The notes beneath the pieces were generated by a model, which ran no database searches, was not told the origin of the DNA, and saw only the letters and a list, made by a program, of their open reading frames with translations. Made by a program: the position numbers and the translations under genes. From contig JAAOZP010000004.1 in the NCBI GenBank assembly GCA_011605725.1, positions 124,001-188,000 of the forward strand: a stretch of DNA of 64,000 nucleotides, read 5' to 3'. This document shows positions 2,922 to 58,194 of this stretch, one piece after another. Each line of letters begins with the position of its first letter. Within the stretch, counting starts at the first letter, position 1. This stretch comes from Nitrososphaerota archaeon (GTDB lineage Archaea > Thermoproteota > EX4484-205 > JAAOZP01).

Positions 2922-2933
2922 AGCGCGCGCGCT
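2922..2933. repeat. GC-alternating palindrome AGCGCGCGCGCT
   Basis: A 12-nt copy located about 60 nt before the sulfur-carrier start and followed by TTTAAAA. The GNAT gene ends 83 nt to its left; no remnant is evident on either side. Confidence 0.7.
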
Positions 2934-5957: not shown

Positions 5958-5969
5958 CTAGCGCGCTAG
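5958..5969. repeat. palindrome CTAGCGCGCTAG
   Basis: A perfect 12-nt palindrome with a shorter (GC)3 core, between the synthase and phosphodiesterase genes, before a T-run. Confidence 0.6.
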
Positions 5970-13174: not shown

Positions 13175-15933
13175 ACATTAAGCTTTTCCAAAAGCCTTCT
13201 GTCCTGAACCTCATTGTTCAAGTGCAGCAGTAACTCTTCTTTCGAGTTAACCCCTACCAGCGATTTCACAGCAGCGTCTAAAAGGCTTGAAACAGGCTCG
13301 ACAACAATGCCTTTAGACTCTAAGAGCTCAATTATCTTAAGGTTCTTCATCGACTCGTAGTTGAACACGGGGACGAGAAGCTTCTTCGCAAACCTGTCCG
13401 CTAAAGCCGCATCTATCTTACCCATACCCCTGTGATCCAGTCCTCCGACAGGCCAAACCTCACCCTTAGCCGTTATTGCACCCGTCATTATGACTGTTGG
13501 ATCAACCTCAATACCTGTGAAGGCAGATATCATCGCTACACCTATAGCTAACCCGGCTGAGGGGCCGGAAACAGGAGGATAAGAGAGGCCGGGGCGGAGC
13601 TGAAGCTTCTCCATGCCCTTCGCTGGCGTGACTAGCTCCACGAAAACATCGTGATTCTTAAACCTCCATTCAGAGATGCTGTTTACATATATGAAGGCAT
13701 CCTCAGCACTAGCCTGAATGCTTTCACCATACTCACTTCCAACAACCTTCACAACCCCCTTCCCCTTCGGGTTAGTGACAACCTCTACGACGCTCACGAA
13801 CCCGCTCTGTTCGCCAGCAGCACCTATGGCGACAAGACCATAGGTTTTACCAATCTCAGGGCTTTCAACCCTTACGCTCTTATCAATCATTGTGCGAGCC
13901 TCGCTAACCGACTCCTCCTCTGAAAGGGTTTCCAGCGCTTCTTGAAAGTGAATAGGCCGGAGTGGGTAGTTTGAAGGTGAAACCAGCCTGAGGCTGTCTA
14001 TGAAGCTCCCGGAGGCCTGGTCTACCCCAAGTATCCTGGAAAGCCTCTCCAGATCCTTAGCGTATATTTTCCTTATTTCTTCAACTGGACGACCCTCGTC
14101 AACCGTTTTCACAAGCTGCCTCGCAGCATCCAGCTCCTTAACCCTAAGCCTGTTAGCCTCGTTAATCACGTCAGCAATCCTCCTCGGGCTTAAAGCCTTC
14201 TTCCTAAGTATCTCCAGCACATTGTCCACCGTAGCCTCAGGGCTAAGGACATCCAGATACTTTTTCAAATGGATTCTTATAATCTCCCTCCTCTCCTCAT
14301 CGTTTCTAGGATAGTTGAATTCGAATACGCGTGTAAACCTTTCCAGTAAAGCCCTGTCTAGAACGTCGAGCCTATTCGTGCTGGCTATAACCACAACGCC
14401 TGAAAGAGGTATGAAGCCATCCAGCTCCGTTAAAAGCTGGCTCGTAACCCTGTCTAAGACCGGGTCATGCGTTCCACGTCCAGGTGCAACAGAATCTATC
14501 TCGTCGAAGAAGACTATGGCTGGAGCATTCCTCCTCGCGTCCTCGAAAATATCCCTTATCGTTTTCTCAGGATCACCATACATCCCTTGGATTATTGAGG
14601 GCCCGTTGACAAGATAGAACCAGACATTGTTCTCCCCGGCTATGGCTCTTGCTAGAAGAGTTTTCCCGGTTCCCGGCGGACCGTGGAAAAGAAAGCCTTT
14701 CGGAGGAATATACCTGGCCTTGCTCGCTAACTCAGGGTTTAACGATAAAGAAATCTCTTTGATAATTTCCTCCCTAACGCCTTTAAGCCCTCCAACATCT
14801 TCATACCGCTCTTTCGGCCTAAGCTTAACCACGGATTTCTTAGCGGCTTCAGTCCTAGTGCTTACCGAGTAAGCCTTAACCTTTGAAGCAGCCTCCCTGA
14901 AATCGTTAAGCGTAACAAGCTCACCAGGGTTAATCTGGCTCCCCGGCTCACCCCCATGGAGAAGCCTATTGATAAGCTTCTTCTGAAACGGGGCAGCCCT
15001 GTTGCTAATAACCAGTTGGAAAGCGTTAACTATGTCTGCAGGGGTTATAGCCTGTGTTTCGAAAGACCTTAAACTATCCTCTATCACCGTGAGAATGTCT
15101 TGCGGCGGAAGCCTTACGCCGTGAACCTTACATTGTTTCTCAACTATTTTAAGAAGCATCTGTCTAGACATGTTTTCATCGAGATCTATTGTTCCAGCAA
15201 CCCCCCTTCTGCGAAGAGTATCCACCAGCGACTCATACTCGGTTGTTGAAACCATCACCACAGTACGGTAATCCTTTCTCTGAAGCTCGTCAAACTTTTC
15301 AAGGAGAACTGTTTGAACCCTCGTCTCCTCCATCCCCACCTCCGTTGTGGAGCTGAACTTTTTCGCGAAAGCTTGGAACTCATCTATCAAAACTATACTC
15401 GGATTGTAAAACACGTTGTTGAAGAACTCGCTGAGCCTCTGCGCACTCTGACCATACCACATGGAGTAAACCTGTTCAGGCTTAAGCTTTGCAAGGTTCA
15501 CGAGCAAACCATACTCCAAACCTTTTTCAAAACCCTCCCTTTGAACAACCTCCGCGAAGAAGGTTTTACCAGAGCCGCTTGAACCCTTTACAATGAACAG
15601 TTTAGGCGGCGGTGCTGCTTTGAAAGTCCTCCTTATCTCAGGGTCTCTTAAAACATGGTAGTGGATACTGACTAAGACTTTGAACAGCTCCTCATCCCTA
15701 CCCACCATATCCTCCTTGGAAACCCTTGGAAACATAGGGTTTTTCCTAATCTTTCTAGCTTTTTTCTCGACTATTTTCCTCCTCTTCTCCGGAGGGAGGC
15801 GGAGAAACCTCCACATCCTGTACCTCCAGGAGAAAAGGTTAAGAAGCGGGGAGAATAATAGTCTTAGAAGCGGCTTCTTATACCACCATTCTTCCTCGAA
15901 CTCCCTGTCTTCTTCGAACTCGCTTGAAAACAT
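13171..15933 (-). CDS. Lon-type protease with two tandem AAA+ modules
   Basis: A 920-residue ATP-dependent protease of unusual architecture. After a basic/hydrophobic N terminus, a first AAA+ module has Walker A GSSGSGKT (about 117-124) and Walker B VLIDEF (about 181-186). A second, CDC48/FtsH-like module has GPPGTGKT (418-425), FFDEIDS (476-482) and the ASTNRLDVLDRALLERF sensor/arginine-finger region. A C-terminal Lon (S16) domain has the catalytic Ser793 in GPSAG and Lys840. The loop before Lys840 (GGLDHRGMGK) is longer than usual. Canonical archaeal LonB has one AAA+ module with membrane helices inserted in it; I see no such helices here. The 3' end overlaps the PhoU gene by 4 nt. Confidence 0.88.
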   Translation of the reverse strand: MFSSEFEEDREFEEEWWYKKPLLRLLFSPLLNLFSWRYRMWRFLRLPPEKRRKIVEKKARKIRKNPMFPRVSKEDMVGRDEELFKVLVSIHYHVLRDPEIRRTFKAAPPPKLFIVKGSSGSGKTFFAEVVQREGFEKGLEYGLLVNLAKLKPEQVYSMWYGQSAQRLSEFFNNVFYNPSIVLIDEFQAFAKKFSSTTEVGMEETRVQTVLLEKFDELQRKDYRTVVMVSTTEYESLVDTLRRRGVAGTIDLDENMSRQMLLKIVEKQCKVHGVRLPPQDILTVIEDSLRSFETQAITPADIVNAFQLVISNRAAPFQKKLINRLLHGGEPGSQINPGELVTLNDFREAASKVKAYSVSTRTEAAKKSVVKLRPKERYEDVGGLKGVREEIIKEISLSLNPELASKARYIPPKGFLFHGPPGTGKTLLARAIAGENNVWFYLVNGPSIIQGMYGDPEKTIRDIFEDARRNAPAIVFFDEIDSVAPGRGTHDPVLDRVTSQLLTELDGFIPLSGVVVIASTNRLDVLDRALLERFTRVFEFNYPRNDEERREIIRIHLKKYLDVLSPEATVDNVLEILRKKALSPRRIADVINEANRLRVKELDAARQLVKTVDEGRPVEEIRKIYAKDLERLSRILGVDQASGSFIDSLRLVSPSNYPLRPIHFQEALETLSEEESVSEARTMIDKSVRVESPEIGKTYGLVAIGAAGEQSGFVSVVEVVTNPKGKGVVKVVGSEYGESIQASAEDAFIYVNSISEWRFKNHDVFVELVTPAKGMEKLQLRPGLSYPPVSGPSAGLAIGVAMISAFTGIEVDPTVIMTGAITAKGEVWPVGGLDHRGMGKIDAALADRFAKKLLVPVFNYESMKNLKIIELLESKGIVVEPVSSLLDAAVKSLVGVNSKEELLLHLNNEVQDRRLLEKLNV

Positions 15934-16755: not shown

Positions 16756-17488
16756 GGTAGACCTCCTCAGGGTAAATCTGACACTTCTCACAGTAATACT
16801 TGGACTCCTCAGGCCTCCAAACGAGTTTAGAGCCGCAGTTCGGACAGAGAGGCGGGGTTCCTAAAGGCGGGATCCTTCCCCTCCCGGTTTCTCCAGCTCC
16901 CGTCTCAACACGCTTAGCAGGAGCAGGGGGAGTCTTAAGAGAGAGAACCAAGTGGGTTAAAACCCCGGACAACACAGCTACTGCAATAATGTTGATTACT
17001 GTTCCGGCAATTATCACGAGTGAGAGGGTTGCTACAGCATCATCCACCGCGACGGATTTTAAAGACAGATCGTACAAGACTGGTTTTAAATCCATATGTA
17101 GAAAGTAGACGCCTAGGGCGGACACCACGGTGACGGAGAAAACTGATGCTTTAACAGCATCGGACACTGAGCGAGACAGAATACTGGCAACGATACTTAT
17201 GGTTACGATAATAGTTAAACAGACTGCAAGCCAAACGCTGGAGTTGAAAAACTGCGTGAAAACATTCACAAGACTCTTGCCTTGAGTCGCAATAGCCTCA
17301 ACGCCGAAGCCCGGGACAGACATTCCTAAAGCGTAAACCCAGGGACTATTGGCAAGACCAGACAGGCTTATGTTTTCACCACTATATTCAATACTGTTTG
17401 AAGGAAGCATGGTTAATATTGAGTCGATCAGCAGTATCGGCGAGAGCGCGAGTAGCGTTAACACTATTACCACCAGAGTTAACCTCAA
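16745..17488 (-). CDS. membrane protein with C-terminal zinc ribbon
   Basis: A 247-residue protein with about five transmembrane helices: an N-terminal one, a pair around residues 85-125 and two around 150-185. A cytosolic tail of ~60 residues ends in a zinc ribbon, CPNCGSKL followed 15 residues later by CEKC. The first helix may be a signal anchor with an extracellular loop of about 50 residues. TTG at 17488 is the likely start. The function is unknown. It could be grouped with the next two minus-strand genes, which lie just upstream. Confidence 0.6.
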   Translation of the reverse strand: MRLTLVVIVLTLLALSPILLIDSILTMLPSNSIEYSGENISLSGLANSPWVYALGMSVPGFGVEAIATQGKSLVNVFTQFFNSSVWLAVCLTIIVTISIVASILSRSVSDAVKASVFSVTVVSALGVYFLHMDLKPVLYDLSLKSVAVDDAVATLSLVIIAGTVINIIAVAVLSGVLTHLVLSLKTPPAPAKRVETGAGETGRGRIPPLGTPPLCPNCGSKLVWRPEESKYYCEKCQIYPEEVYLSI

Positions 17489-35628: not shown

Positions 35629-36834
35629 ATGGAACCCGGCCCGCTGGCTAGGAGGCTTGTCGACAAGATTTTTTCAGAGGAGAGAACTGTAGCCGGGCTC
35701 ATGTCTGGGACGAGTGCTGACGGTGTTGACGTGGTTGCCGTAAGATTGAAGGGTCATGGTAAAGAAGTCAGACATAGGGTTCTCCATAAGGATACTGTAC
35801 CATATCCCGGTGAGCTTAGGAAGTACATACTGGATTCTGTTGAAAAGGGCTCTGTCCACGATGCATGCCTCCTAAACTATCTTGTGGCTGAAGCATTTTC
35901 AAACGCTTTGAAGGATTCTATAGAGTGCTCGAGTATCCGTCTCAGCGAGATTGACCTAATAGGGTCGCACGGGCAGACGGTGCACCATTTTCCGGAGTAC
36001 GTTTCCCTCGGAGGGTTTTCAAGTAGGTGTTCTCTCCAACTAGGGTCAGTTCAAGTCATAGCTGAGAGAACAGGCGTGACGACAGTAGGGAACTTCAGGG
36101 TAAGGGATATTGCAGCCGGGGGGCAGGGGGCTCCGATAATAGCCTACGTTGACTACTCTTTACTCTCAGACCCAAGGAAGGGGAGGCTCGTGCAGAACAT
36201 AGGAGGCATAGCCAACGTAACCGTGCTCCCCGCAGACTCTGGAGTCGGAAACGTATACGCTTTCGACACGGGCCCTGGAAACAGCCTGATAGACTTTGCA
36301 GTAGCGATGCTGTATCCAGGTTTAACCTATGATCCTGAGGGCGAAATCGCTTCCAAGGGTTCCTGCGACGAGGAGGTTTTGAAAGAACTCATGGCCCACG
36401 AATACGTTGCCAAGCCGCCTCCGAAAACCACTGGAAGAGAAGTTTTCAGCAGCTCTCTCGCCAAAAGGATTGTTGAGAAAGGGCTTGGTAAAGGCCTTTC
36501 TAAGGAGGATGTTGTCGCTACTTTGACGATGTTCACCGTTAAAAGCATTGTTAAAAACTATGATCTTTTCATACTACCGAGGGTTAGGGTTGAGGAGGTT
36601 ATCGTTGGGGGAGGAGGTGCTAGGAACAGGACTCTCATGAAGTATCTCGAAGAGGAATTGGAGGAAAGAGGCCTGAGGCTGCTTAGACACGAGGATGTGG
36701 GAATCGACTCAAAGATTAAGGAGGCCCTTGGCATGGCTGTGCTCGCACACGCCACTCTAAGTGGTGTCCCCAACAATATACCTGGAGCCACTGGGGCTGG
36801 GAGAAGCGTTGTAATGGGGGAGATCGCCCTATAG
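35629..36834 (+). CDS. anmK: anhydro-N-acetylmuramic acid kinase
   Basis: A 401-residue AnmK that phosphorylates and opens 1,6-anhydro-MurNAc to MurNAc-6-phosphate. LMSGTSADGVDVVAV (about 24-38) is the diagnostic phosphate loop, SHGQTVHHFP the catalytic region, GNFRVRDIAAGGQGAPI and NIGGIANVTVLP follow, and GGGGARNRTLM is the C-terminal loop. Archaea lack murein, so the substrate would come from bacterial wall debris or be a related anhydro-sugar. Its 3' end overlaps the convergent beta-lactamase-fold gene by 6 nt. Confidence 0.92.
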   Translation: MEPGPLARRLVDKIFSEERTVAGLMSGTSADGVDVVAVRLKGHGKEVRHRVLHKDTVPYPGELRKYILDSVEKGSVHDACLLNYLVAEAFSNALKDSIECSSIRLSEIDLIGSHGQTVHHFPEYVSLGGFSSRCSLQLGSVQVIAERTGVTTVGNFRVRDIAAGGQGAPIIAYVDYSLLSDPRKGRLVQNIGGIANVTVLPADSGVGNVYAFDTGPGNSLIDFAVAMLYPGLTYDPEGEIASKGSCDEEVLKELMAHEYVAKPPPKTTGREVFSSSLAKRIVEKGLGKGLSKEDVVATLTMFTVKSIVKNYDLFILPRVRVEEVIVGGGGARNRTLMKYLEEELEERGLRLLRHEDVGIDSKIKEALGMAVLAHATLSGVPNNIPGATGAGRSVVMGEIAL

Positions 36835-38048: not shown

Positions 38049-39056
38049 TCATTGAGGATTGAAGCATGCGACGAAACGGCGGTTCCGGAGTTCTGCTAGT
38101 GGAGGAGTTTTCTTGCTGCATTCTTCGGTCCTGAATGGGCAACGCGGATGAAATCGACAGCCTTTAGGAGGATCTATAGCGCTTGCTATTTCTCCTGTTG
38201 CTCCCAATCTTCTTTTAGGCCGGTCGCCAAAGCCGAAGCTTGCAGAAGCCGATAGTAGGAGCTGTGAATATGGATGAAACTGGTGACTCATGAAGTCTTC
38301 TATCGGAGCTATCTCCATTATTTTTCCAAGGTACATTACTATTATTCTATCGCAAGTATAATATGCTACGCGAAGGTCATGTGTCGTAAGCAAGTATGTT
38401 AAGCCGTATTGATTCTTTAGTTCCATCAAAAGATTAAGAATACCCGACCTAATGCTGAGGTCAAGCATTGAAACGGGCTCGTCTGCTATGAGGAACTGTG
38501 GCTTAACGGCTAATGCTCTGGCTATTGCAACTCTTTGCCTTTCACCCCCACTAAGTTCATGCGGGTATTTATCTATAGCATCTTCAGAAAGACCGACACT
38601 TCTCAGCAGATCGATACAGTATTCTCTTATCTTATTCTTGTCTTTAACAATACCTTGTACGCGCAGTGGGAATGCTATCGTTGAGAAAACAGTTAGGCGC
38701 GGGTTTAACGATCCGTAAGGATCTTGAAAGATCATCTGAACCATCCTTCTATAGTTTTTCAAATCCTTGCCACGAAGAGACATGATATCCCTCCCCTGGA
38801 AAAGGACCTTGCCCTCAGTCGGAGGTGTGAGCCTTGCGATAACCCTTCCAATCGTAGTTTTGCCGCTCCCGCTCTCCCCAACAAGGCCGAGTACTTCACC
38901 AGAATCTATGAAGAATGATACATCGTCCACTGCATAAACATATTTTCTCCTGATAAGACTACTTGTCTGGGCTGGGAAATACACTTTAAGATTTTTTATT
39001 TCAAATAAATGAGGGTTTTTGCTTAAAAAACTAGCATTGCTCGCTTTCTCCATCAT
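38049..39056 (-). CDS. oligopeptide ABC transporter ATPase (OppF/DppF type)
   Basis: A 335-residue ATPase with Walker A GESGSGKTT (about residue 60), Q-loop, signature LSGGERQRVAIARAL, Walker B LIADEPVS, and the C-terminal cysteine-rich Opp extension (CRFHPRCPFRTEEC). It energises uptake of peptides or oligosaccharides. It is translated after the OppD-like gene, with a 4-nt overlap. The partner permease downstream of the promoter is truncated (40018-40535) and no binding protein is present, so the transporter is likely orphaned. Confidence 0.92.
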   Translation of the reverse strand: MMEKASNASFLSKNPHLFEIKNLKVYFPAQTSSLIRRKYVYAVDDVSFFIDSGEVLGLVGESGSGKTTIGRVIARLTPPTEGKVLFQGRDIMSLRGKDLKNYRRMVQMIFQDPYGSLNPRLTVFSTIAFPLRVQGIVKDKNKIREYCIDLLRSVGLSEDAIDKYPHELSGGERQRVAIARALAVKPQFLIADEPVSMLDLSIRSGILNLLMELKNQYGLTYLLTTHDLRVAYYTCDRIIVMYLGKIMEIAPIEDFMSHQFHPYSQLLLSASASFGFGDRPKRRLGATGEIASAIDPPKGCRFHPRCPFRTEECSKKTPPLAELRNRRFVACFNPQ

Positions 39057-40012
39057 GAAACCACCTTATGGCAGGCAACATAGTGGCCTTGCCCCACTTC
39101 AATAAACTCTGGTTTTTTGCTAAAGCATCTTTCCATGGCGATTGGGCAACGTGGCCTGAATCTACATCCTTTGATTTCAGCAGCAAGGTCAGGGGGAGAC
39201 CCGGGTATTGACCAGAGTTTCTCTCCTCTACGCGTAAGGCTCATTAAAGACTTGACTAAACCATCCGTATAAGGGTGAAGCGGGTTTGAAAGGAGGCTCT
39301 TCGTATCAGCCATTTCCACAAGCATTCCAGAGTACATTACTGCAATCCTATTGCTGAATTCGGCAAGAGTTGAGAGATCGTGAGTAATAAATAGTACTGA
39401 GAGACCAAACCTCTTCTTCATATCCCAAAGCACCTCTAGAACCTGTCTTGCAACCACCACATCCAGTGCCGTTGTAGGCTCATCGGCAATCAAGAGAACA
39501 GGGTTTAGAGCAAGAGCCATAGCTATGATCGCTCTTTGACGCATACCGCCGCTATACTGGTGAGGATAATCGTTCGCCCTTGACTCATCTATACCTACAA
39601 GAGAAAGTAGTTGCTTAGCTCTTGATATTGCATCACGCTTAGACACACTTTCATGCACCATAATCGCCTCAGCTATCTGATCGCTGACCCTATGCACAGG
39701 GTTTAAGCAGTTCATTGCATTTTGAAAGATCATTGATACTTTCTTCCACCGATAAGCTCTCAAATCCTCTTCCTTAAGGTTCAAAACATCTATACCGTCA
39801 CAAACAATTCTTCCACCTATTATCTTCCCAGGTGGCTTAATCAATCTCAGAATCGCGTAGGCAGTTGTACTTTTCCCACAACCAGATTCCCCGGCAAGAC
39901 CAAAAACTTCTCCTCTATCAACGTGAAATGTAACACCGTCAACAGCCTTAACCTCGCCTTTTCGAGTGAAGAAGCTTACGTGCAAATCTTGGATAGAGAG
40001 CACCTGACTCAT
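39053..40012 (-). CDS. oligopeptide ABC transporter ATPase (OppD/DppD type)
   Basis: A 319-residue ATPase with Walker A GESGCGKSTT, signature YSGGMRQRAIIAMAL, Walker B LIADEPTTALD, and the OppD C-terminal CRFRPRCPIAMERC cluster. It is a partner of the OppF-like gene. It starts 5 nt after the remnant permease gene. Codon use looks like that of the neighbours, but the block from 38 to 43 kb is slightly more AT-rich, compatible with acquisition of a sugar/peptide-use island. Confidence 0.92.
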   Translation of the reverse strand: MSQVLSIQDLHVSFFTRKGEVKAVDGVTFHVDRGEVFGLAGESGCGKSTTAYAILRLIKPPGKIIGGRIVCDGIDVLNLKEEDLRAYRWKKVSMIFQNAMNCLNPVHRVSDQIAEAIMVHESVSKRDAISRAKQLLSLVGIDESRANDYPHQYSGGMRQRAIIAMALALNPVLLIADEPTTALDVVVARQVLEVLWDMKKRFGLSVLFITHDLSTLAEFSNRIAVMYSGMLVEMADTKSLLSNPLHPYTDGLVKSLMSLTRRGEKLWSIPGSPPDLAAEIKGCRFRPRCPIAMERCFSKKPEFIEVGQGHYVACHKVVS

Positions 40013-40017
40013 TTTTC

Positions 40018-40535
40018 TCAGTAGCTCCTGAGCCTCGGATTAGCGATAGTATTTATTGCAGAACCAAGCAAGTGTATCCCTAAACCGATCAGTGCAATGC
40101 ACAAGCCTGGTGCCGTGACCCAAGCCCAGCCCATGTTATACACAGCTCCCCCCATGTTTGCAAAGTATATTACAGTCCCCCAACTCATTTGGGAAGGGTC
40201 TCCTAGACCAAGAAAGCTGAGGGATGCCTCTGACATGATTCCTGAGATGATCGTCAATATCGCATTTGCCATCACAAGTGGCAGTATGTTAGGCAATATA
40301 ATAGAAAAGGTTATTCGAAGTTGACTGGCACCACTCATCCTTGCAGCATCAACATATGCTCTTTGCTTGACAGTTAAGGCTTCAGATCTAACTATTCTAG
40401 CCATTGCGGGCCAACCGAATGCCGAAAGAACTATAATAATGTTGAAAACACCCCGGCCTAACAATGCCGCAGTGAAGATCGTTAATGGAAGCTTCGGTAT
40501 TATTATGAGCACATCACAGAACCTCATGAGCGCGC
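40018..40535 (-). pseudogene. oligopeptide ABC permease (OppC/DppC type), 5' half missing
   Basis: The C-terminal ~170 residues of an OppC/DppC permease: LMRFCDVLIIIPKLPLTIF (in part), the EAA loop ARIVRSEALTVKQRAYVDAAR (in part), and SFLGLGDPSQMSWGTVIY. A full OppC has about 280-300 residues, so the signal segment and the first membrane helices are gone. The frame enters straight from the AGCGCGCGCGCGCT element at 40529-40542; the nominal ATG 40527 is an internal Met. No frameshift is seen in the rest. The oppB and binding-protein genes are absent, so it is not functional as part of this transporter. Confidence 0.88.
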
Positions 40536-40542
40536 GCGCGCT
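40529..40542. repeat. GC-alternating palindrome joining two truncated divergent genes
   Basis: AGCGCGCGCGCGCT is the longest copy of the element. The minus-strand permease frame and the plus-strand glycosyl-hydrolase-like frame both run outward from it with their 5' portions missing. This is the clearest case of the element sitting at a breakpoint. Confidence 0.8.
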
Positions 40543-40944
40543 ATTATTGCAAATGATTTTTCACCTAATCCGGATGATTATGAATCAGTGGTTAAGGCGC
40601 TGGGACAGGATTGGATCTCTTGGGTTAATGAGGGCCTACTAGACTTCGCTGAGCCTATGATATACTGGACCGAACCAAAGGATTTTGGAACGATTGTTAG
40701 AAATCTGATGAACAGGATAAGAGATAAGAGTTTTCCAATATATCCTGGTATCTTAGTGTCGAACGACTACGTTATTGAACCTAATAAGGTGATGGAGTAC
40801 GCCAAGAAGTCCATTGATGCTTCAGGTTCTGGAATTACACTGTTCCAGTATGCCAGCTGGTGTGCCTCTCATAGGAGGTCCTTAGGGCTACCTGAGATAA
40901 GGGACTATGATCAAGAACTTATCAGGTTAAGGGAATTACAATAA
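40543..40944 (+). pseudogene. C-terminal remnant of a GHL10-like (DUF187) glycosyl hydrolase
   Basis: About 134 residues of open frame, beginning within the GC element and reading IIANDFSPNPDDYESV, then GQDWISWVNEGLLDFAEPMIY, which is the conserved strand pattern of the glycosyl-hydrolase-like 10 / DUF187 TIM barrel, then FPIYPGI and a C-terminal helix. A GTG at 40588 is internal. Full proteins have 350 or more residues, so the first two-thirds are missing. No frameshift is seen in what remains. Confidence 0.75.
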
Positions 40945-41076
40945 CTGACATCATCCTTTAAGTCAAAACATCCATGAAATAACTTGCTATGCTTAACTAG
41001 TGGGGCAAGCCCGGTAAAATAGCAAGATTATCATCTGACAACTTAGCGTGCTTACAAGCTGTGCATCAATCTTCTT

Positions 41077-43089
41077 CTATCTGCACCTATACAATATAAG
41101 CGTCGAATCAGGATTCTTAGCCAAATGAACCTTAAGCCCCTCATCCATGAGTTCCTTACCGGTCAGGGTTCTCTTCTCCCCCGTGTCCAGATCAGTTATT
41201 TCATAATGAGCATCAGGCTGTAGTTCACGAAGCCTGAAGACAGCGTCAGTCAAAGGGCTTAAGCGACGTTTCAGCACTACTACCAGTCCCTCAGCTAAAT
41301 CAGGGCGATCAAGCTGGTACGCCATCCAAGCCTCTTCAGACTGAGTGTAAGGGGTTAGCGGATAATAGTCGCCATAATAAAACTTTCTAATACTTAAGTA
41401 CTGGTTGAGCTTCTTTCTCACCGAGTTGAAAACCGTTTCTCCCCCAGAGATACTTTCTTCAATTCCTAGAGTAAAAACCATGCTTGCGCACATTACACTA
41501 CGGAACGCGTAGTCGTCAGCCTTCGCCATGTTTAAACCTCCTGCTCCGAAAAGCGGTATCCAAAGGAGTAGACCGTAAACATGACACTGGTTTGCAACAG
41601 GCCCGTCTATGAAATCCGTAGACCAAAATGGCGTGCTTCGTCCAATCGTTTCCAAGTCGATTCGACGACCCCCGCTTGCACAATTATCTATAATAAGATT
41701 AGGATGCTTTTGAAGAAGATCGTCCCAGAAAGCGTAAAGCCCTTCCACGTATCTGATTTCAGTAATCCCCTGCCTGTCTTCAGAGTCCGCATTACGCCAG
41801 AACCTTAATGGAGCAATATTAGCGTCATGCCTGTAGCAATCAATATGGAATTCAGCAATCCGATTCGAGATGAAATCCGTGAGGAAGCGGCGCGCCTCAG
41901 GATTACCAAGGTTAAACAGCGCGTCTCCTTCAGCAATCTGGTTCCGACGGCTTTCGAAGAAAACCCATGCTGGATCATTCTTGTCAAAGTAGTGCGGCCA
42001 GCTGAAAACCGTGTCCACACTTTTAATCTTAAGCAGCCAGTTGCAATGCTCACGATACCAGGGCGTATCTTTGCAGACTCGTTCAGGCTCAAACCAGAGT
42101 GAAAGCTTACGCCCAGATTTATGAAGCGTGGCAGCGATTTCTTTAAAGCCCTCCGGATAAAGATCCTCCCTAACCTCCCAGTTTCCCACGTTTTTCCACC
42201 AAGGTTGGCCTCCAAACCACTCCGCATCGATCCAGTAATATTCAACTGGAAGATCGTGATTAATTATTTTCCCTATAGTATCTAAATGGGTTTTTGCAGG
42301 AGTCCCACCCCAGCTTGAGAAAAATACTGGTGCAACTAGTGGTTTACCGTCTACGGAAGGACGGTGGTGAGTGAGAATAAATCGCCGCAACATGTTTTGA
42401 CCACGCATCCAATCCTTGCTCCAGAATAGCAGTAGAATTCGTGGAGACCTGATTTCCTCACCCGGGTAAAGCCTTAGATTCGTAGTCTCCATGCCGGCCT
42501 GCAAACGCAACTCGTTTCCACTGCTACGTTTGAACAGTGCTGCCCACTCGCCAGTCCAGCCGATCGCAAGTATTACGCCTTCCTCCTCCATTTCAATATT
42601 GAAAAACGGTAGGAATTCGCTGGAGGACCGTCCGCCACCGGGTCGAAGCAAGAATTCTTCGTCAAGATTAAGGTCTTTCTGAATAGGCATAAAATCGTCA
42701 ATTGAGGCGAGAGCACCTTTAGCATAATGAAGAGTAAACCGGTTTCTCTGACAATGCATTACGACATCCAGTGCCTGAATGCTCTTGATAATCGGCGTAG
42801 TTTCCACAGAAGCATTCTTAAAGTATAAAACCCATTCTAATGCTGGAAAATCACGATACTCGATTAAGATACATCTTACCTGTAACCCTGTCTCACTATC
42901 GTTATGAAGCATCACGTGTTCAATGCGTTCACCGTCCAGCTGCCGCGTGGCATGCGCGAAATCCCAGTTCCTCAATAGATCTTTAGAAAACCTGCCACCA
43001 TACGTGAATGAGAACGGAGGATCTGTACCGGATATAAACCTGGTTAAAACCCGTTGCACAGCAGCCGTTTCAACAGGAGAAACATTCAT
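41077..43089 (-). CDS. GH36-family alpha-galactosidase
   Basis: A 670-residue clan-D alpha-galactosidase. The TIM barrel has WIDAEWFGGQPW, KLSLWFEPERV, DCYRHDANIAP (nucleophile Asp region), NCASGGRRIDLETI and FWSTDFIDGP (acid/base Asp region). The N-terminal beta supersandwich precedes it and a C-terminal beta domain follows. There is no signal peptide, so it probably cleaves imported galactosides. It lies next to the oligopeptide/oligosaccharide-type ABC ATPase genes and a GH3 gene on the same strand. Confidence 0.9.
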   Translation of the reverse strand: MNVSPVETAAVQRVLTRFISGTDPPFSFTYGGRFSKDLLRNWDFAHATRQLDGERIEHVMLHNDSETGLQVRCILIEYRDFPALEWVLYFKNASVETTPIIKSIQALDVVMHCQRNRFTLHYAKGALASIDDFMPIQKDLNLDEEFLLRPGGGRSSSEFLPFFNIEMEEEGVILAIGWTGEWAALFKRSSGNELRLQAGMETTNLRLYPGEEIRSPRILLLFWSKDWMRGQNMLRRFILTHHRPSVDGKPLVAPVFFSSWGGTPAKTHLDTIGKIINHDLPVEYYWIDAEWFGGQPWWKNVGNWEVREDLYPEGFKEIAATLHKSGRKLSLWFEPERVCKDTPWYREHCNWLLKIKSVDTVFSWPHYFDKNDPAWVFFESRRNQIAEGDALFNLGNPEARRFLTDFISNRIAEFHIDCYRHDANIAPLRFWRNADSEDRQGITEIRYVEGLYAFWDDLLQKHPNLIIDNCASGGRRIDLETIGRSTPFWSTDFIDGPVANQCHVYGLLLWIPLFGAGGLNMAKADDYAFRSVMCASMVFTLGIEESISGGETVFNSVRKKLNQYLSIRKFYYGDYYPLTPYTQSEEAWMAYQLDRPDLAEGLVVVLKRRLSPLTDAVFRLRELQPDAHYEITDLDTGEKRTLTGKELMDEGLKVHLAKNPDSTLILYRCR

Positions 43090-43239
43090 CCTTACCGCCT
43101 CAGCTTGCAGGAAAGCCCTAACCGGATTTAAGGTTTAACAAGTATCCGCAACCAGACTGCAGCTTGAATAGAAATACGCATCATGAGAAACGGCTGATAC
43201 TGAGGAAGCAAATCCAGCTTTTTGAAAAACCCTAGTTGT

Positions 43240-45390
43240 TTAACTAACGATTAGCCTGTTTACGAGCCTAATGTCCCTTGAGGAAGAACCCACCCTTACC
43301 TCATACTCTCCCTTCTCGACAACCCATTTCTCACCATCATAGCTTGCAAGCATGTCAAAATCCAGCTCAACCCTTATCCCTTCCTTCTCACCAGGGTTTA
43401 GAAGCCTCGTCTTATGAAACCCTTTAAGCTCTTGAAAGGGCTTGTCCACCCTGCCCTTCGGCGCCCTGACATAGACTTGGGCAACCTCTTTCCCCGGGAG
43501 GCTTCCAGTGTTCTCAACCTCGAAGGAAACAATCACCCTATTGTTAACCACCTCAACCATTAGACCCCTGTATTCGAAGCTGGTGTAGGAAAGACCGAAG
43601 CCGAACTCGTAGGCAGGCTCAACCCCGAAACTATCGTAATACCTGTAGCCAACGTATATCCCCTCGTCGTACACGACTCTCTGCGGGTTCTCCCTCGGCT
43701 TCCCTGGGAAGCTCCAGGATGGAACATCAGAATAATCCATGGGGAAGGTTGTTGGAAGCTTGCCAGACGGGTTTCTCTCGCCCGAAACAATGTCGGCAAC
43801 TATCCTCCCCGTCTCCTGGCCAGCCTGCCACGTTAACAGGATTCCGTCAACCATGTTCCTCCAGCTGGCGACCTCTATCGGGGATCCTATGTTCAACAGT
43901 GCTACAACCTTCTTACCATGCTGATGAAAAGCTTTAGAAACCCTCTCCACCAGGGTTCTCTCGTCATCGCTCAAATAGAAGTCTCCCTTCTCAGGCTTCC
44001 TATCGTAGCCCTCACCCGATATCCTGCTTATCACGATGATTGCGACATCATTTCTCTCCGCAAACCTGCTTATCTCCTCCTCACCTAGAAAATCCTGGGG
44101 AACCGGTTTAAAGACTTCCCCGAACATTGTTTTCTCAATCCTGTATTCAGCCCTACTCCTGATCTCAGCCAAGTATTTCGCATGGGTCTCCGCAAGCTCC
44201 TCGTCTATCCTCAGGCGTTTCTCCCTCATCCCGTCGAGAATAGATATTACGTACCTCGGATGAGTGTCACCGCTTCCAGTCCCGCCTTTAATGGTCTCTA
44301 TCTGGCCTGTTCCGAAGAGAGCTATTTTAGCATCCTTTCCCACGGGCAATGCTCCATCGTTCTTAAGAAGGACAACTCCCTCCACGCCTGCCTCATAGGC
44401 AACCCTGGCGTGAGCATCGAGATCAGGCTTGTTAGAATACTCGTATCCTTTGAAGGAAGGGGTGTTGACTAGAACCCTTAGAATGTTCTTCACATTCCTT
44501 ATGAGGGTTTCCTCATTAAGCCTCCCTTCTCTAACAGCATTAATTATCGCCTCCACCTCGTCCTTCCTGCTGGGGTCGACCTGATTCGCCTTCCCAGGCA
44601 TTATCATATCGTTGCCAGCCCTCATCATCTCCACAGGATCGTCCTTCGCAAACCAGTCTGTCATCACGAAGCCTTCAAACCCCCAGTCGCACCTCAGAAC
44701 CCTCGTCAGAAGCCACTCGTTCTGCGAACAGTGTTCCCCGTTCAGCTTATTGTACGCGCTCATAACTGTCCACGGCTTAGACTTCTTAACAGCTATCTCG
44801 AAACCCTTAAGATATATTTCTCTAAGCGCTCTTTCAGAAACAAGCGTGTCGATCAGGAAACGGTTTGTCTCCTGATTATTGGCTGCAAAATGCTTCAAGC
44901 AGGCGCCGACGCCTTGAGACTGAACACCCTTAACGAAGGCTGCAGCCATCTCCCCGGTGAGAAGAGGATCCTCAGAATAGTATTCGAAATTCCTTCCACA
45001 TAAAGGATTCCTGTGAATATTCATCGCAGGCGCGAGAAGAATATCCACGCCATACTCCCTAACCTCCTCGCCGACACATCTGCCAACAGCCTCCAGCAAC
45101 TCCCTGTTCCAAGTTGAAGCGAGCATTGTCTCAACGGGGAAAGCCGTAGAGTGATACGTTTTATCATCATTCTCCCTCCGAGGGTTTATTCTCAATCCGG
45201 CGGGCCCGTCTGCCAAGACGGCTGAAGGTATTCCAAGTCTTTCAACAGGATGGGTCTCGCCAGCAGCACCTGGAACTCTTGGAGGAGGGTTGCCGAACAT
45301 GCCGGGTATGCCTATTCCAACAACGATCCTAGCCTTCTCCTCAAGAGTCATCCTAGAAACAATATCTGGAACCTCTTTCAGAGTCACCAA
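43240..45390 (-). CDS. GH3-family beta-glucosidase with fibronectin III-like tail
   Basis: A 716-residue retaining glycosidase. It shows VLADGPAGLRI, GRNFEYYSEDP, KHFAANNQETNR (the Lys-His-Phe motif) and GFVMTDWFAKDDP with the nucleophile Asp, then the (alpha/beta)6 sandwich and a C-terminal fibronectin III-like domain (about 620-716). The KHFAANNQE form is that of beta-glucosidases/xylosidases, not of NagZ. No signal peptide is seen, so it is cytoplasmic. Confidence 0.93.
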   Translation of the reverse strand: MVTLKEVPDIVSRMTLEEKARIVVGIGIPGMFGNPPPRVPGAAGETHPVERLGIPSAVLADGPAGLRINPRRENDDKTYHSTAFPVETMLASTWNRELLEAVGRCVGEEVREYGVDILLAPAMNIHRNPLCGRNFEYYSEDPLLTGEMAAAFVKGVQSQGVGACLKHFAANNQETNRFLIDTLVSERALREIYLKGFEIAVKKSKPWTVMSAYNKLNGEHCSQNEWLLTRVLRCDWGFEGFVMTDWFAKDDPVEMMRAGNDMIMPGKANQVDPSRKDEVEAIINAVREGRLNEETLIRNVKNILRVLVNTPSFKGYEYSNKPDLDAHARVAYEAGVEGVVLLKNDGALPVGKDAKIALFGTGQIETIKGGTGSGDTHPRYVISILDGMREKRLRIDEELAETHAKYLAEIRSRAEYRIEKTMFGEVFKPVPQDFLGEEEISRFAERNDVAIIVISRISGEGYDRKPEKGDFYLSDDERTLVERVSKAFHQHGKKVVALLNIGSPIEVASWRNMVDGILLTWQAGQETGRIVADIVSGERNPSGKLPTTFPMDYSDVPSWSFPGKPRENPQRVVYDEGIYVGYRYYDSFGVEPAYEFGFGLSYTSFEYRGLMVEVVNNRVIVSFEVENTGSLPGKEVAQVYVRAPKGRVDKPFQELKGFHKTRLLNPGEKEGIRVELDFDMLASYDGEKWVVEKGEYEVRVGSSSRDIRLVNRLIVS

Positions 45391-45648: not shown

Positions 45649-45966
45649 TTATTCTCTTCTCTCCACGATTATCTTACACTTTGTCGCTATAGCTGCAATA
45701 ACTCCTAGGGCAGCCATCCATGGTGCTAAGATGGCACCTATCACTCCTACAGTAGCAGGGATTTCGAGCAGTGTTTCATCCTTCTCGCTTTTCACAATTA
45801 TTCTTGTAACATTCCCTTCATGAATAATGTTTTTAATCGTTTTAACAAGATCATCTGAAGAAACCGCGTATTCCTCTCTTGAAACCTTTCCAACGGGGGA
45901 GCCGCATGCGGAGCAGAAAGCAGCGTCATCAGGCAGTTCCCTACCGCACTTCTGACAATGCTTCAA
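45649..45966 (-). CDS. zinc-ribbon plus DUF4342 small protein
   Basis: A 105-residue protein starting with a zinc ribbon (CQKCGRELPDDAAFCSAC, residues 4-21) followed by a DUF4342-type domain (VKTIKNIIHEGNVTRIIVK, then LLEIPATVGVIGAILAPWM) with one hydrophobic helix that may insert in or lie on the membrane. The function is unknown; DUF4342 proteins are often fused to small sensor or ribbon modules. The 258-nt gap to the GH3 gene has AT boxes and no further gene that I can see. Confidence 0.7.
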   Translation of the reverse strand: MKHCQKCGRELPDDAAFCSACGSPVGKVSREEYAVSSDDLVKTIKNIIHEGNVTRIIVKSEKDETLLEIPATVGVIGAILAPWMAALGVIAAIATKCKIIVERRE

Positions 45967-45991: not shown

Positions 45992-46297
45992 CTAAAGAAA
46001 GTTTTTAAACTTTTTTAAGGACGCTAAGCCACTATTCTTCTCATGGAGCCACCTTAACCCTCCGGGCCAGCCTTTACTCGACATCCCAAGGATAAAGCGA
46101 TAATACTCGTTTATTTTGCTCACAGCATAGCTATAATCCTTCCAACGCCACAAGAAGTAGTTTGATACAGCCGCTCGCCTGAATTGACCGACTGTCGTGT
46201 AAAAAGTGGATTCTCCCCTCTAATGACGTTCGATAAGACTGTGATTATCCCAAGTGGATGCGGGCTTACCCTCACGGTATTGGTAAACAACATTAGC
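45992..46297 (-). pseudogene. frameshifted gene remnant ending at a GC palindrome
   Basis: Reading leftward from the GC element, a first frame gives about 25 sensible residues (NTVRVSPHPLGIITVLSNVI), then a shift to another frame gives about 75 residues to TAG at 45992: GESTFYTTVGQFRRAAV, then NYFLWRWKDYSYAV, then WPGGLRWLHEKN. The composition is clearly protein-like, but there is no start and at least one frameshift, so it is a decayed 3' portion. The family is not recognised. Confidence 0.5.
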
Positions 46298-46304
46298 GCG
46301 CGCT
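46295..46304. repeat. GC-alternating palindrome AGCGCGCGCT between two remnants
   Basis: A perfect 10-nt core with a minus-strand remnant on its left and a plus-strand remnant on its right, both lacking 5' ends, the same arrangement as at 40529-40542. Confidence 0.75.
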
Positions 46305-46517
46305 TTAAGAATCAAGTGTTTCCAACAGTTCTATGTGCACGCGACGTTAACAGTGTATACCGCGTTCTTTGGCCCAAGAATACATGTACTTTGGGACTCA
46401 ATGTCTACACCAGAAGTACTCGTAGCTCTACCTGTTTTAATGCTTGCAACCCTGGTTCACAAGTACCTTATAAAGGAATTGAGCGCGCCGTATTCCAGTT
46501 CTTGGAAATCACGTTAG
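46305..46517 (+). pseudogene. short gene remnant, possibly a sugar ABC permease C terminus
   Basis: A frame reading out of the GC element gives about 70 residues to TAG 46515-46517: FQQFYVHATLTVYTAFF, then VLVALPVLMLATLVHKYLI. The last part resembles the final helix and RYLIKGL-type end of MalG-like sugar permeases, after which family members continue with a TFGAVK-type tail; here the sequence changes at AGCGCGCC (46482-46489). A GTG at 46335 is internal. The identification is weak. Confidence 0.4.
46482..46489. repeat. GC palindrome variant AGCGCGCC
   Basis: An imperfect copy where the permease-like tail changes character and where another frame (46487-46618) begins, so it looks like a second junction inside the same mosaic. 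Confidence 0.5.
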
Positions 46518-46618
46518 AGCCCCTGAACACCACAACCATCCTGCGACTCTTCAAGACTATTATTGTAGGTTCGTCAACGCCTCTTGAAGATTTGAGACCG
46601 GAGAACACAATACTATAG
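46487..46618 (+). pseudogene. short C-terminal gene remnant of unknown family
   Basis: A frame starting inside the AGCGCGCC element gives 43 residues (VFQFLEITLEPLNTTTILRL, then a hydrophobic strand and PLEDLRPENTIL) ending at TAG 46616-46618. It has no start codon of its own, but the amino-acid pattern looks like the end of a real protein. It is placed end to end with the remnant before it. Confidence 0.35.
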
Positions 46619-46837
46619 GGTTCGCAGCGGTATAGAGCGCATCACGCTACATGTCCACCAACCAGTCCAGGTTAGCAGCTGCTATTATCCTCCGGATAAC
46701 GAACATAATCTCGTCTTCATACTCCAACTCGCTTGTAGCACTGCTAACCTTCATCCTTTTTCAACCTGTTCCTGACTTAGCTCGGGTCTTTCAACGAATT
46801 GATTAACATAGCTAACCCACACCGGTTTTCCCTCGGC
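46619..46837. other. intergenic remnants on the minus strand
   Basis: On the minus strand a start-less frame gives KPVWVSYVNQFVERPELSQE and stops, and a 35-residue frame beginning ATG near 46751 (MKVSSATSELEYEDE, then LDWLVDM) follows in another frame. They look like one short damaged gene, but the identity is not clear. No promoter or RNA was recognised. Confidence 0.3.
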
Positions 46838-47290
46838 TTACTGCTTTCCCCTCCGGGACGAGAACACTGCCTCCGTGCCCAAATAGGAGTTTAAACCCTC
46901 TGAAGTCAACAGGATGAATACGATGCAGGTACTCAACACCCCGGTTAGCAGATTTACTAGATGAGGCATCATCCTTATGACAATGGTTTCGGAATCAATC
47001 TTTCCGGACGATATTTCAGAGAGAAACGGGATGAAACCGTAGAAAGTGGAAAATACCCCTAGGACTGCGAAAACCGTGAAAACAAGCAGGGAAACTGAGA
47101 ACGTTATTATTCCCCGCAGCCTGTAAAACATTATGATGAGAATAATGCAAAGGAATATGAGCAGCAAGTCACCAATCATCCACTTTTTAAAGAAATACGC
47201 TTTCAGAAGCCAAGAGACAAGCCAGGAAACCATTATTGCTGAAATGAATACGGCCACCAATCGGAGCTCCATGGGTTTCTGCTGGGACAA
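46838..47290 (-). CDS. four-helix membrane protein of unknown function
   Basis: A 150-residue protein with four predicted transmembrane helices (about 8-28, 35-52, 60-82 and 108-130) and charged loops; the C-terminal tail (SSRRGKQ) is basic. I do not recognise it. It lies between the mosaic of remnants and the UroD-like gene and is divergent from the latter. Confidence 0.5.
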   Translation of the reverse strand: MSQQKPMELRLVAVFISAIMVSWLVSWLLKAYFFKKWMIGDLLLIFLCIILIIMFYRLRGIITFSVSLLVFTVFAVLGVFSTFYGFIPFLSEISSGKIDSETIVIRMMPHLVNLLTGVLSTCIVFILLTSEGLNSYLGTEAVFSSRRGKQ

Positions 47291-56204: not shown

Positions 56205-56604
56205 ATCTGCAACATTAGACACTATGAGGACAAGCCGGTTCAGCAGCAGTGGAAGGCCGAGTCAAAAACGTTCTTAAGGCTTTTTATAAATCTTGAAGGC
56301 AGGGTTCTTAACTGAAGCTGGAATTGGAATCCGCCCGATTCCTAACCATCATAAGTTTTAGCGCGAGCCAACATATAATTATTCACGCTTCTGAGTAAAA
56401 ATTTTCCGCATTTCCAAAATACTATATGGGTGCTTAAAAATACTTGATTAGCACGTGCTTTCGGCTGGGTGAGATAATAATCGTGTCTTTCAATCTTTCC
56501 TTTGGATTGACCTCAAGATGGATAAGCGCGCGCCGTCTTTCAGATTTCCTTGTTGAACCTTCTTTTGAAAGAGTTAAGTATCAGTACAGGTGTTAAGTAA
56601 TTGT
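56199..56604 (+). other. intergenic stretch with two short gene-tail remnants
   Basis: From the AGCGCACGCT element a start-less plus frame reads AICNIRHYEDKPVQQQWKAE then RLFINLEGRVLN and stops near 56319. From AGCGCGCGCC (56525-56534) another reads RRLSDFLVEPSFERVKYQYR and stops at 56596. Both look like C-terminal tails of real proteins of unknown identity. A further variant, AGCGCGAGC, lies at 56360. Between them the DNA is AT-rich with no other gene that I see. Confidence 0.35.
56525..56534. repeat. GC element AGCGCGCGCC before a short open tail
   Basis: A copy at the left edge of a 20-residue open tail that ends before the isomerase-like gene. Confidence 0.5.
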
Positions 56605-57888: not shown

Positions 57889-58194
57889 AGTGATGTCGAA
57901 ACAGGTGTAAGGAGAAGGGTCTCGGCAATCTTTCAGCTGATAGAGACACGGCTCTCCATAGCTTCATGAAGCTTGGTTTCTGGTCTAAGCACCCTTGTTC
58001 CCTGCGAGAGAATATGGAAGAAGCAGTTAAGGGCGATTTGGTCAACGATGCTGAAACGGGGAAGAGGTTTAACAGGATGCGGAAACGATACTTAAAAGTT
58101 GAGAAGCAATGTTTTCCAACTTTAGGCATGACAAGTTTAGCGCGCGCTGACTCCAGATTTAAAAGCTTTAACTTTCCATCAGGAGTTTAGAAGC
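57889..58194. other. intergenic stretch with a GC palindrome
   Basis: This 306-nt gap contains AGCGCGCGCT at 58139-58148. A 74-codon frame from 57966 crosses it but has a biased, unconvincing composition; I cannot support a gene. The stretch up to 58138 could be a decayed gene. The last 45 nt contain the promoter region of the oxidoreductase gene (TTTAAAAGC). Confidence 0.35.
58139..58148. repeat. GC-alternating palindrome AGCGCGCGCT
   Basis: A perfect core preceded by TTT, 47 nt before the oxidoreductase ATG. Confidence 0.65.

What the first reader, a model, noticed from the sequence alone, without database searches (positions are those of the whole stretch)
45992..46837. A mosaic of gene fragments joined at GC elements
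Within about 850 nt I see at least four start-less fragments of protein-like frames: one on the minus strand from 46297, plus-strand ones at 46305-46517 and 46487-46618, and a minus-strand one at about 46620-46850. Junctions between them are AGCGCGCGCT (46295) and AGCGCGCC (46482). Tails of unrelated genes placed head to tail resemble cassette junk or repeated deletion at the same type of site.
Basis: inference. Interest (0 to 1): 0.7.

Follow-up and report, generated by a model that had tools for sequence, protein, structure and literature searches.

The report
GC palindromes joining broken gene pieces
In a genus of Thermoproteota archaea, a short fixed palindrome (TAGCGCGCGCTA) recurs at many places where DNA was cut, deleted or stuck back together with stray pieces of genes; it looks like the fingerprint of an unusual DNA-end-joining process, and the reported spot is one such joint.

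Summary
The mosaic is real, though smaller than described. Two of the four fragments have homologues in relatives. A BNR/sialidase-like remnant lies on the minus strand (46493-46610), and a membrane-protein tail lies on the plus strand (~46399-46482). Both end within 0-4 bp of GC element 46483-46488. In relative G003 the same two sequences lie ~2.2 kb apart with no GC element at either place, so here the palindrome marks a deletion joint. The other two frames show no homology and no coding signal above shuffles.

The GC element matters more than this site. AGCGCGCGCT occurs 88 times in this genome (reversed control 2), 32 and 18 times in two congeners, and barely in other genera. In sampled noncoding DNA it is 41 observed against 0.06 expected. 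None of 49 noncoding elements is spanned by alignment to relatives (13 expected). Seven ectopic copies of short internal gene pieces sit between two GC elements; the sources lack them.

Best explanation: end joining that leaves a self-complementary GC linker and can capture copied fragments. A candidate, untested here, is primase-mediated joining (pp-MMEJ). Ku and RVT_1 reverse transcriptase were not found. The scar status is well supported; the enzyme is inferred.

The parts
45649..45966 (-). Left flanking intact gene: zinc ribbon + DUF4342, conserved in all congeners examined at this locus
   Evidence: Pfam PF14242 E=1.8e-26; homology to G003 continues to 46015 and stops
46016..46295 (.). 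Piece of unknown origin between the DUF4342 gene and GC1
   Evidence: No homologue in 60 relatives; coding score not above shuffles
46295..46304 (.). GC element 1, AGCGCGCGCT (perfect palindrome)
   Evidence: Sequence; element enriched genome-wide
46304..46482 (+). Fragment whose right half (~46399-46482) is the tail of a membrane protein (VLVALPVLMLATLVHKYLIKELS). Resembles the C-terminus of a MalG-type sugar permease from memory only; not confirmed
   Evidence: 82% DNA identity to G003 (L017:7904-7833) and 75% to G005 (L185:2622-2705), both ending exactly at 46482; tblastn 3.6e-5; no Pfam, PDB or NCBIfam hit to a permease
46483..46488 (.). GC element 2, GCGCGC: deletion joint between the membrane-protein tail and the sialidase fragment
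   Evidence: Homology ends at 46482 on the left and begins at 46493 on the right; in G003 the two sides lie ~2.2 kb apart without a GC element
46493..46610 (-). Remnant of a BNR/sialidase-like protein (EPT..FRGS region)
   Evidence: 84% identical to G003 L003:1501-1618, E=5.6e-30; intact relatives hit BNR_2 PF13088
46611..46826 (.).
   Evidence: No homologue; no Pfam hit; coding score not above shuffles
46838..47290 (-). Right flanking intact gene: ~150 aa membrane protein, conserved in congeners
   Evidence: Synteny with G003 and with SKW236 (= G006)
58140..58147 (.). Second deletion joint in the window: GCGCGCGC where G003 has ~890 bp with a phosphotransferase-like ORF
   Evidence: G003 homology ends at 58139 and resumes at 58161
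40530..40541 (.). (GC)6 element directly beside an apparently 5'-truncated ABC permease ORF (40018-40527, minus strand)
   Evidence: Sequence and ORF list; truncation inferred, not tested against an intact relative
2923..2932 (.). GC element, intergenic; one of further noncoding runs at 5961, 6612, 8591, 24541, 27708, 34330, 51717, 52196, 55194, 56526 and 63577

Best explanation
The region is a graveyard of genes between two conserved genes. The GC elements in it are scars of DNA end joining. In this genus broken ends, and short pieces copied from other genes, are stitched together through a stereotyped self-complementary linker. The usual product is TAGCGCGCGCTA, with (GC)3-6 variants and one-sided forms. 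SHOWN: the element is specific to the genus, avoids genes, is never spanned by homology in the tested G000 sample, sits exactly at some deletion joints where neither parental site has it, and brackets ectopic copies of internal gene pieces whose sources lack it. INFERRED: 3' ends receive a short tail such as TAGCGCGC; two tails, or one tail and a GC-containing site elsewhere, anneal; synthesis copies or bridges; ligation leaves the palindrome. The enzyme is not identified. Archaeal replicative primase PriSL is the best-known candidate: it performs terminal transfer, anneals strands at 2-4 GC pairs, and repairs breaks without Ku in Saccharolobus (PMC12019639).
For: Window joint 46483: homology to G003/G005 stops at 46482 and G003 homology resumes at 46493; in G003 the two sides are ~2.2 kb apart without a GC element, and G005 shares the G003 arrangement on the permease side. 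Window joint 58140: ~890 bp with an ORF in G003 replaced by GCGCGCGC. L033:4188 truncates a GH2-like gene that is intact in G004. Genome-wide: 88 exact sites against 2 reversed controls; 154 noncoding and 46 genic runs although 82% of the sample is coding; AGCGCGCGCT 41 against 0.06 expected while AGCGCT is not enriched. 0 of 49 elements spanned by homology to relatives, 13.1 expected. Seven double-flanked gene-fragment copies; clearest is G000:C16:236-632, GC - 169-bp piece 98% identical to C1 - GC - ~200-bp piece 86% identical to another C1 gene, reversed - GC. Self-alignment ends exactly at elements 5 against 0.37 expected; within 3 bp 13 against 2.5. Form: (GC)4 mostly A..T on both sides (47/73), (GC)3 mostly one-sided (42/71). 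Ku not found in six genomes, RVT_1 not found. pp-MMEJ biochemistry: PMC12019639.
Against: The enzyme and the tailing step were not tested; PriS/PriL were not even searched for here. In S. islandicus primase-dependent indels are mostly 1-2 bp, unlike a fixed 6-12 bp linker. Homology to relatives ends within 3 bp of only 5 of 49 elements (about 1.3 expected); most inter-element pieces have no identified source. Some deletions carry no GC element: the collapsed 136-bp version of this locus in G004 and an internal flavodoxin-like gene deletion near window 57930. Replication in G004 is weak: 2 of 30 elements spanned against 5.5 expected, 0 abutting ends against 0.36, one marginal double-flanked copy.
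Confidence: 0.6

Rival explanations
1. The palindrome is the target or core site of a recombinase or transposon (integron-like, MITE-like, or duplicated on insertion). Fragments were inserted at it, or deletions arose by recombination between two copies.
For: Perfect palindrome of near-fixed length; clustering of elements (33 gaps under 200 bp against 11.6 expected); fragments bracketed by two elements.
Against: No conserved sequence beyond the 12 bp. G003 has no element at either parental site of joint 46483 or around the segment missing at 58140. Source genes of the seven copies have no element at the fragment ends. Flanking elements of one fragment often differ in length (e.g. (GC)4 and (GC)3), unlike a target-site duplication.
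Confidence: 0.2
2. The palindrome is a functional intergenic signal (protein-binding site, terminator, nucleoid or restriction-modification site) that by chance also lies near joints.
For: Mostly intergenic, often tens to hundreds of bases from gene ends.
Against: Positions are not conserved: 0 of 49 spanned by homology to congeners. Three congeners have zero copies (G001, G002, G007; two of these are incomplete), and G005 has only 3. Elements bracket fragment copies exactly.
Confidence: 0.1
3. Ordinary decay of pseudogenes, with chance open frames and chance GC palindromes.
For: Two of the four reported frames have no homologue and no coding signal; the locus is decayed in several congeners.
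Against: GC runs far exceed chance; exact coincidence with homology ends at 46483 and 58140 (two-sided 2 observed against 0.06 expected); double-flanked copies.
Confidence: 0.05
4. Artefact of metagenome assembly or amplification, with chimeric reads joined through a linker sequence.
For: A palindromic linker between unrelated pieces is what chimeric libraries can produce; the genome is a draft in 20 contigs.
Against: Six of the seven captured copies have diverged 7-28% from their sources, so they are old. The two sides of joint 46483 come from one ancestral locus. Elements also occur in separately assembled congeners G003, G004 and G006 (= SKW236). Variants with one changed base are common, as expected of ageing scars.
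Confidence: 0.05

Closest known systems
Primase-polymerase-promoted microhomology-mediated end joining (pp-MMEJ) of Saccharolobus islandicus (PMC12019639)
   Same: A thermophilic Thermoproteota repair route that works without Ku; terminal transfer, annealing at as few as 2-4 GC pairs, extension onto another strand; could yield GC-rich joints and copied inserts
   Different: Known products are mostly 1-2 bp indels with C insertions; no stereotyped palindromic linker and no captured gene fragments are described in the parts read. Primase was not tested here
Templated insertions and filler DNA of eukaryotic polymerase-theta end joining and plant NHEJ (from general knowledge)
   Same: Copies of short pieces from elsewhere in the genome placed at deletion joints
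   Different: No constant palindromic linker; different enzymes
N-additions by terminal transferase in V(D)J joining (from general knowledge)
   Same: Non-templated GC-rich nucleotides at joints
   Different: Random sequence and length, not a fixed self-complementary TAGCGCGC half
REP/BIME intergenic palindromes (PMC12306157, PMC2817692)
   Same: High-copy intergenic palindromes
   Different: From general knowledge REPs are longer stem-loops; this element is a 12-bp perfect palindrome without a loop, has no conserved flanks, and marks joints
Integron gene cassettes (from general knowledge)
   Same: Gene pieces separated by short palindromic sites
   Different: Pieces are internal gene fragments of ~50-210 bp copied from intact genes, in either orientation, not whole-gene cassettes with attC sites

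Membership tests
Classical bacterial/archaeal NHEJ | Ku protein | tested here: not met
   PF02735 absent from G000, G002, G003, G004, G005, G007; positive control rings in Bacillus subtilis. G000 is ~93% complete
pp-MMEJ (PriSL) | Joining without Ku | tested here: met
   Ku not found
pp-MMEJ (PriSL) | GC microhomology or terminal-transfer nucleotides at joints | tested here: inconclusive
   GC-only linkers at joints; a few source-gene breakpoints also carry GC or AGCGC next to the fragment, not tested statistically
pp-MMEJ (PriSL) | Dependence on PriS/PriL | not testable with these tools
   Needs genetics or biochemistry; presence of the genes was not searched
Reverse-transcriptase-driven insertion (retron, group II intron, RT-Cas1) | RVT_1 reverse transcriptase | tested here: not met
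   PF00078 absent in six genomes; control rings in three genomes
Transposon/MITE | Conserved terminal repeats plus internal sequence beyond the 12 bp | tested here: not met
   Base composition of the 12 positions on each side is flat except the adjacent TA
Integron | Whole-gene cassettes | tested here: not met
   Double-flanked units are 58-212 bp gene fragments
Integron | Integron integrase | not tested
   No search left for it
CRISPR array | Regular array of identical repeats with unit-length spacers | tested here: not met
   Spacing runs from a few bases to kilobases and repeats vary from (GC)3 to (GC)6
BNR/sialidase-like protein (parent of fragment 46493-46610) | Match to the BNR_2 profile | tested here: met
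   Intact homologues L021 and L022 score above the Pfam cut-off; the window fragment itself is too short to hit
MalG-type ABC permease (parent of the plus-strand tail) | Match to a permease family | tested here: not met
   No permease-family hit in Pfam, NCBIfam or PDB sequences; not filed as a permease

The most novel reading that the evidence does not exclude
These archaea possess a dedicated DNA-end tailing activity that adds a defined self-complementary sequence (TAGCGCGC) to broken ends, telomerase-like or terminal-transferase-like. Any two ends, and pieces copied from elsewhere, can then be annealed and joined at high temperature, steadily building junkyards of gene fragments: an end-joining mode with a universal sticky linker.
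Probability: 0.3. Interest if true: 0.9.

Novelty: new variant of a known kind. Interest (0 to 1): 0.74.

Why it matters
How archaea without Ku repair double-strand breaks is an open question (stated as unclear in PMC12019639). A constant linker left at joints would make past end-joining events countable by a simple pattern search across genomes, date them by divergence, show what was lost or captured, and point to lineages where the responsible enzyme can be found by comparing species with many, few and no copies. It would also explain how gene-fragment mosaics form in these compact genomes.

Tried and rejected
Rfam found no structured RNA at the locus and ARAGORN found no tRNA in the window. 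Local repeats in 45.4-47.4 kb are short chance pairs. A lipase reading of the EPT..FRGS fragment was my first guess; intact homologues gave BNR_2 instead. An ABC permease identity for the plus-strand tail could not be confirmed (the query was a hand-made hybrid of the G003 and G005 remnants). A target-site-duplication model was judged less likely because paired elements differ in length. Exonuclease trimming of a 12-mer against one-tail and two-tail joining could not be separated: odd run lengths are rarer but present. One genome-contig scan with the neighbouring protein found nothing; a second gave SKW236, which corresponds to G006. My first reading of single-sided homology ends as proof was cut back after one search showed only modest enrichment.

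Full report
WHAT WAS CHECKED. The window lies in contig C4 of a 2.23-Mb archaeal draft genome (G000, 20 contigs). One congener, G006, corresponds to the public MAG 'Crenarchaeota archaeon isolate SKW236': contig C196 and JAOAJQ010000070.1 are both 6,676 bp and give the same alignment coordinates. NCBI now files that organism name under Thermoproteota. The reported frames and GC palindromes are present.

THE LOCUS. Homology to congener G003 covers both flanking genes, a zinc-ribbon/DUF4342 gene with homology ending at 46015 and a membrane-protein gene with homology starting at 46827. Between them only one DNA block is strongly conserved, 46493-46610, 84% identical. Read on the minus strand it gives KSSRGVDEPTIIVLKSRRMVVVFRGSN. 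Intact 325-404 aa proteins in congeners align to it (tblastn E about 1e-4), and the two tested belong to Pfam BNR_2, the sialidase-like repeat family. The G003 copy is itself a longer pseudogene with stops and frameshifts. A second block, 46399-46482 on the plus strand (VLVALPVLMLATLVHKYLIKELS), is homologous to remnants next to the DUF4342 gene in G003 and G005. It resembles the tail of a sugar-transporter permease, but no family search confirmed that. The remaining pieces, 46016-46295 and 46611-46826, have no homologue and no coding signal above shuffles, so two of the four reported frames may be chance.

THE JOINT. The plus-strand block ends at 46482 in both G003 and G005 alignments, GCGCGC occupies 46483-46488, and the sialidase block starts at 46493. 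In G003 these two blocks are ~2.2 kb apart (L017:5655 and L017:7833), with further genes between, and neither place carries GCGCGC. G005 shares the G003 arrangement on the permease side, so G000 is the derived state. The same locus is 136 bp long and without a GC element in G004, and a few hundred bp long with one GC element in SKW236/G006.

THE ELEMENT. GCGCGC runs are far over-represented in the window (34 against 8.2). AGCGCGCGCT occurs 88 times in G000 against 2 for the reversed control, 32 in G004, 18 in G003, 6 in G006, 3 in G005 and none in three further congeners (two of them incomplete assemblies), while other genera are near their control. In a first 450-kb sample noncoding AGCGCGCGCT is 41 against 0.06 expected, while AGCGCT is not enriched. 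In a 649-kb sample 154 runs lie outside and 46 inside predicted genes, although 82% of the sequence is called coding. The consensus is TAGCGCGCGCTA, with nothing conserved beyond. (GC)4 forms usually have A and T on both sides (47 of 73); (GC)3 forms usually on one side only (42 of 71). Copies with one changed base are common, as expected if old copies decay.

ELEMENTS MARK JOINTS. In three 20-kb stretches none of 49 noncoding elements is spanned by an alignment to a congener, against 13.1 expected from random noncoding positions (P about 2e-7 if independent). Two are bracketed by homology on both sides within 10 bp, against 0.06 expected: 46483, and 58140-58147, where G003 has ~890 bp carrying a phosphotransferase-like ORF. 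A GH2-like gene intact in G004 is cut exactly at L033:4188. An MFS-type transporter pseudogene appears to have an internal deletion at L028:15982 (family assigned by eye). The single-sided test is weaker: 5 of 49 within 3 bp against about 1.3 expected.

ELEMENTS BRACKET COPIES OF GENE PIECES. Self-comparison of the 649-kb sample finds seven short ectopic copies lying between two GC elements. Five sources lie in predicted genes and a sixth in an open frame that the gene caller missed; no source has a GC element at the fragment ends. The clearest is G000:C16:236-632: GC element, a 169-bp piece 98% identical to part of a small open frame on C1, GC element, a ~200-bp piece 86% identical to part of another C1 gene in reverse, GC element. 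Alignment ends coincide exactly with elements 5 times against 0.37 expected, and within 3 bp 13 times against 2.5. Sources remain in place, so these are copies.

MECHANISM. The facts asking for explanation are a constant self-complementary sequence at joints, its absence from parental sites, deletions and copied inserts alike, and confinement to one genus. Tailing of 3' ends with a sequence such as TAGCGCGC, followed by annealing through the GC core, accounts for the palindrome, for length changes in GC steps, and for one-sided forms. Annealing of a tailed end to a GC-containing site elsewhere, with extension, would give copied inserts; a few source breakpoints do carry GC or AGCGC next to the fragment, but this was not tested statistically. 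Ku and RVT_1 were not found in six genomes. Saccharolobus primase PriSL performs terminal transfer, promotes annealing through 2-4 GC pairs, extends across strands and mediates Ku-independent break repair, named pp-MMEJ (PMC12019639). It is the natural candidate, but its known products are mostly 1-2 bp indels, and no enzyme was tested here. The scar interpretation is therefore well supported, the tail-and-anneal route moderately, and the primase only by analogy.

WHAT SPEAKS AGAINST. Most inter-element pieces have no identified source. Some deletions carry no element. The G004 replicate is weak (2 of 30 elements spanned against 5.5 expected and no abutting ends; one marginal double-flanked copy). 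A recombinase-site model is not excluded. An assembly artefact is unlikely because six of the seven copies have diverged 7-28% from their sources and four separate assemblies carry the element.

VERDICT. The general phenomenon, a genus-specific palindromic linker at rearrangement joints and around captured gene fragments, did not match anything I found in the literature searched.

Noticed in passing
window 56389-56451: 63-bp stretch 83% identical to G000:C1 (L028:13105-13168), an ectopic copy 75 bp from a GC element at 56526.
   Followed up: partly
window 40018-40944: A (GC)6 element at 40530 sits directly beside a DppC-like permease ORF that looks 5'-truncated; a further short frame (40588-40944) that looks like part of a glycosidase lies beyond it (assignments by eye).
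   Followed up: no
window 38146-43246: A block with ABC-transporter genes and an alpha-galactosidase-like gene is missing at this place in G003 apart from ~130 bp (40817-40946), and SKW236/G006 also has a compact GH3-serine hydrolase junction.
   Followed up: partly
L003:2257-2448 and L185:4051-4242: A 63-aa cysteine-rich protein (MAQNQDDLKCEICGKGG...) is nearly identical in G003 and G005 while its neighbours are decayed; no Pfam family.
   Followed up: no
L033:13862-13960, 14427-14537, 16780-16968, 7581-7662: Short stretches that recur several times in G000, G002, G003 and G004; in G004:C23 and G003:C39 two of them lie next to each other, so they may be pieces of one mobile element.
   Followed up: no
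window 35629-36834: An anhydro-N-acetylmuramic acid kinase (AnmK, Pfam E=3e-93) in an archaeon, next to a serine-hydrolase-like gene; AnmK is otherwise known from bacterial cell-wall recycling (the latter from general knowledge).
   Followed up: no
L037:15469-15488 and L221:18513-18528: Two GC elements in direct tandem sharing a TA (GCGCGCGCGCTAGCGCGCTA), as if the linker had been added twice.
   Followed up: no
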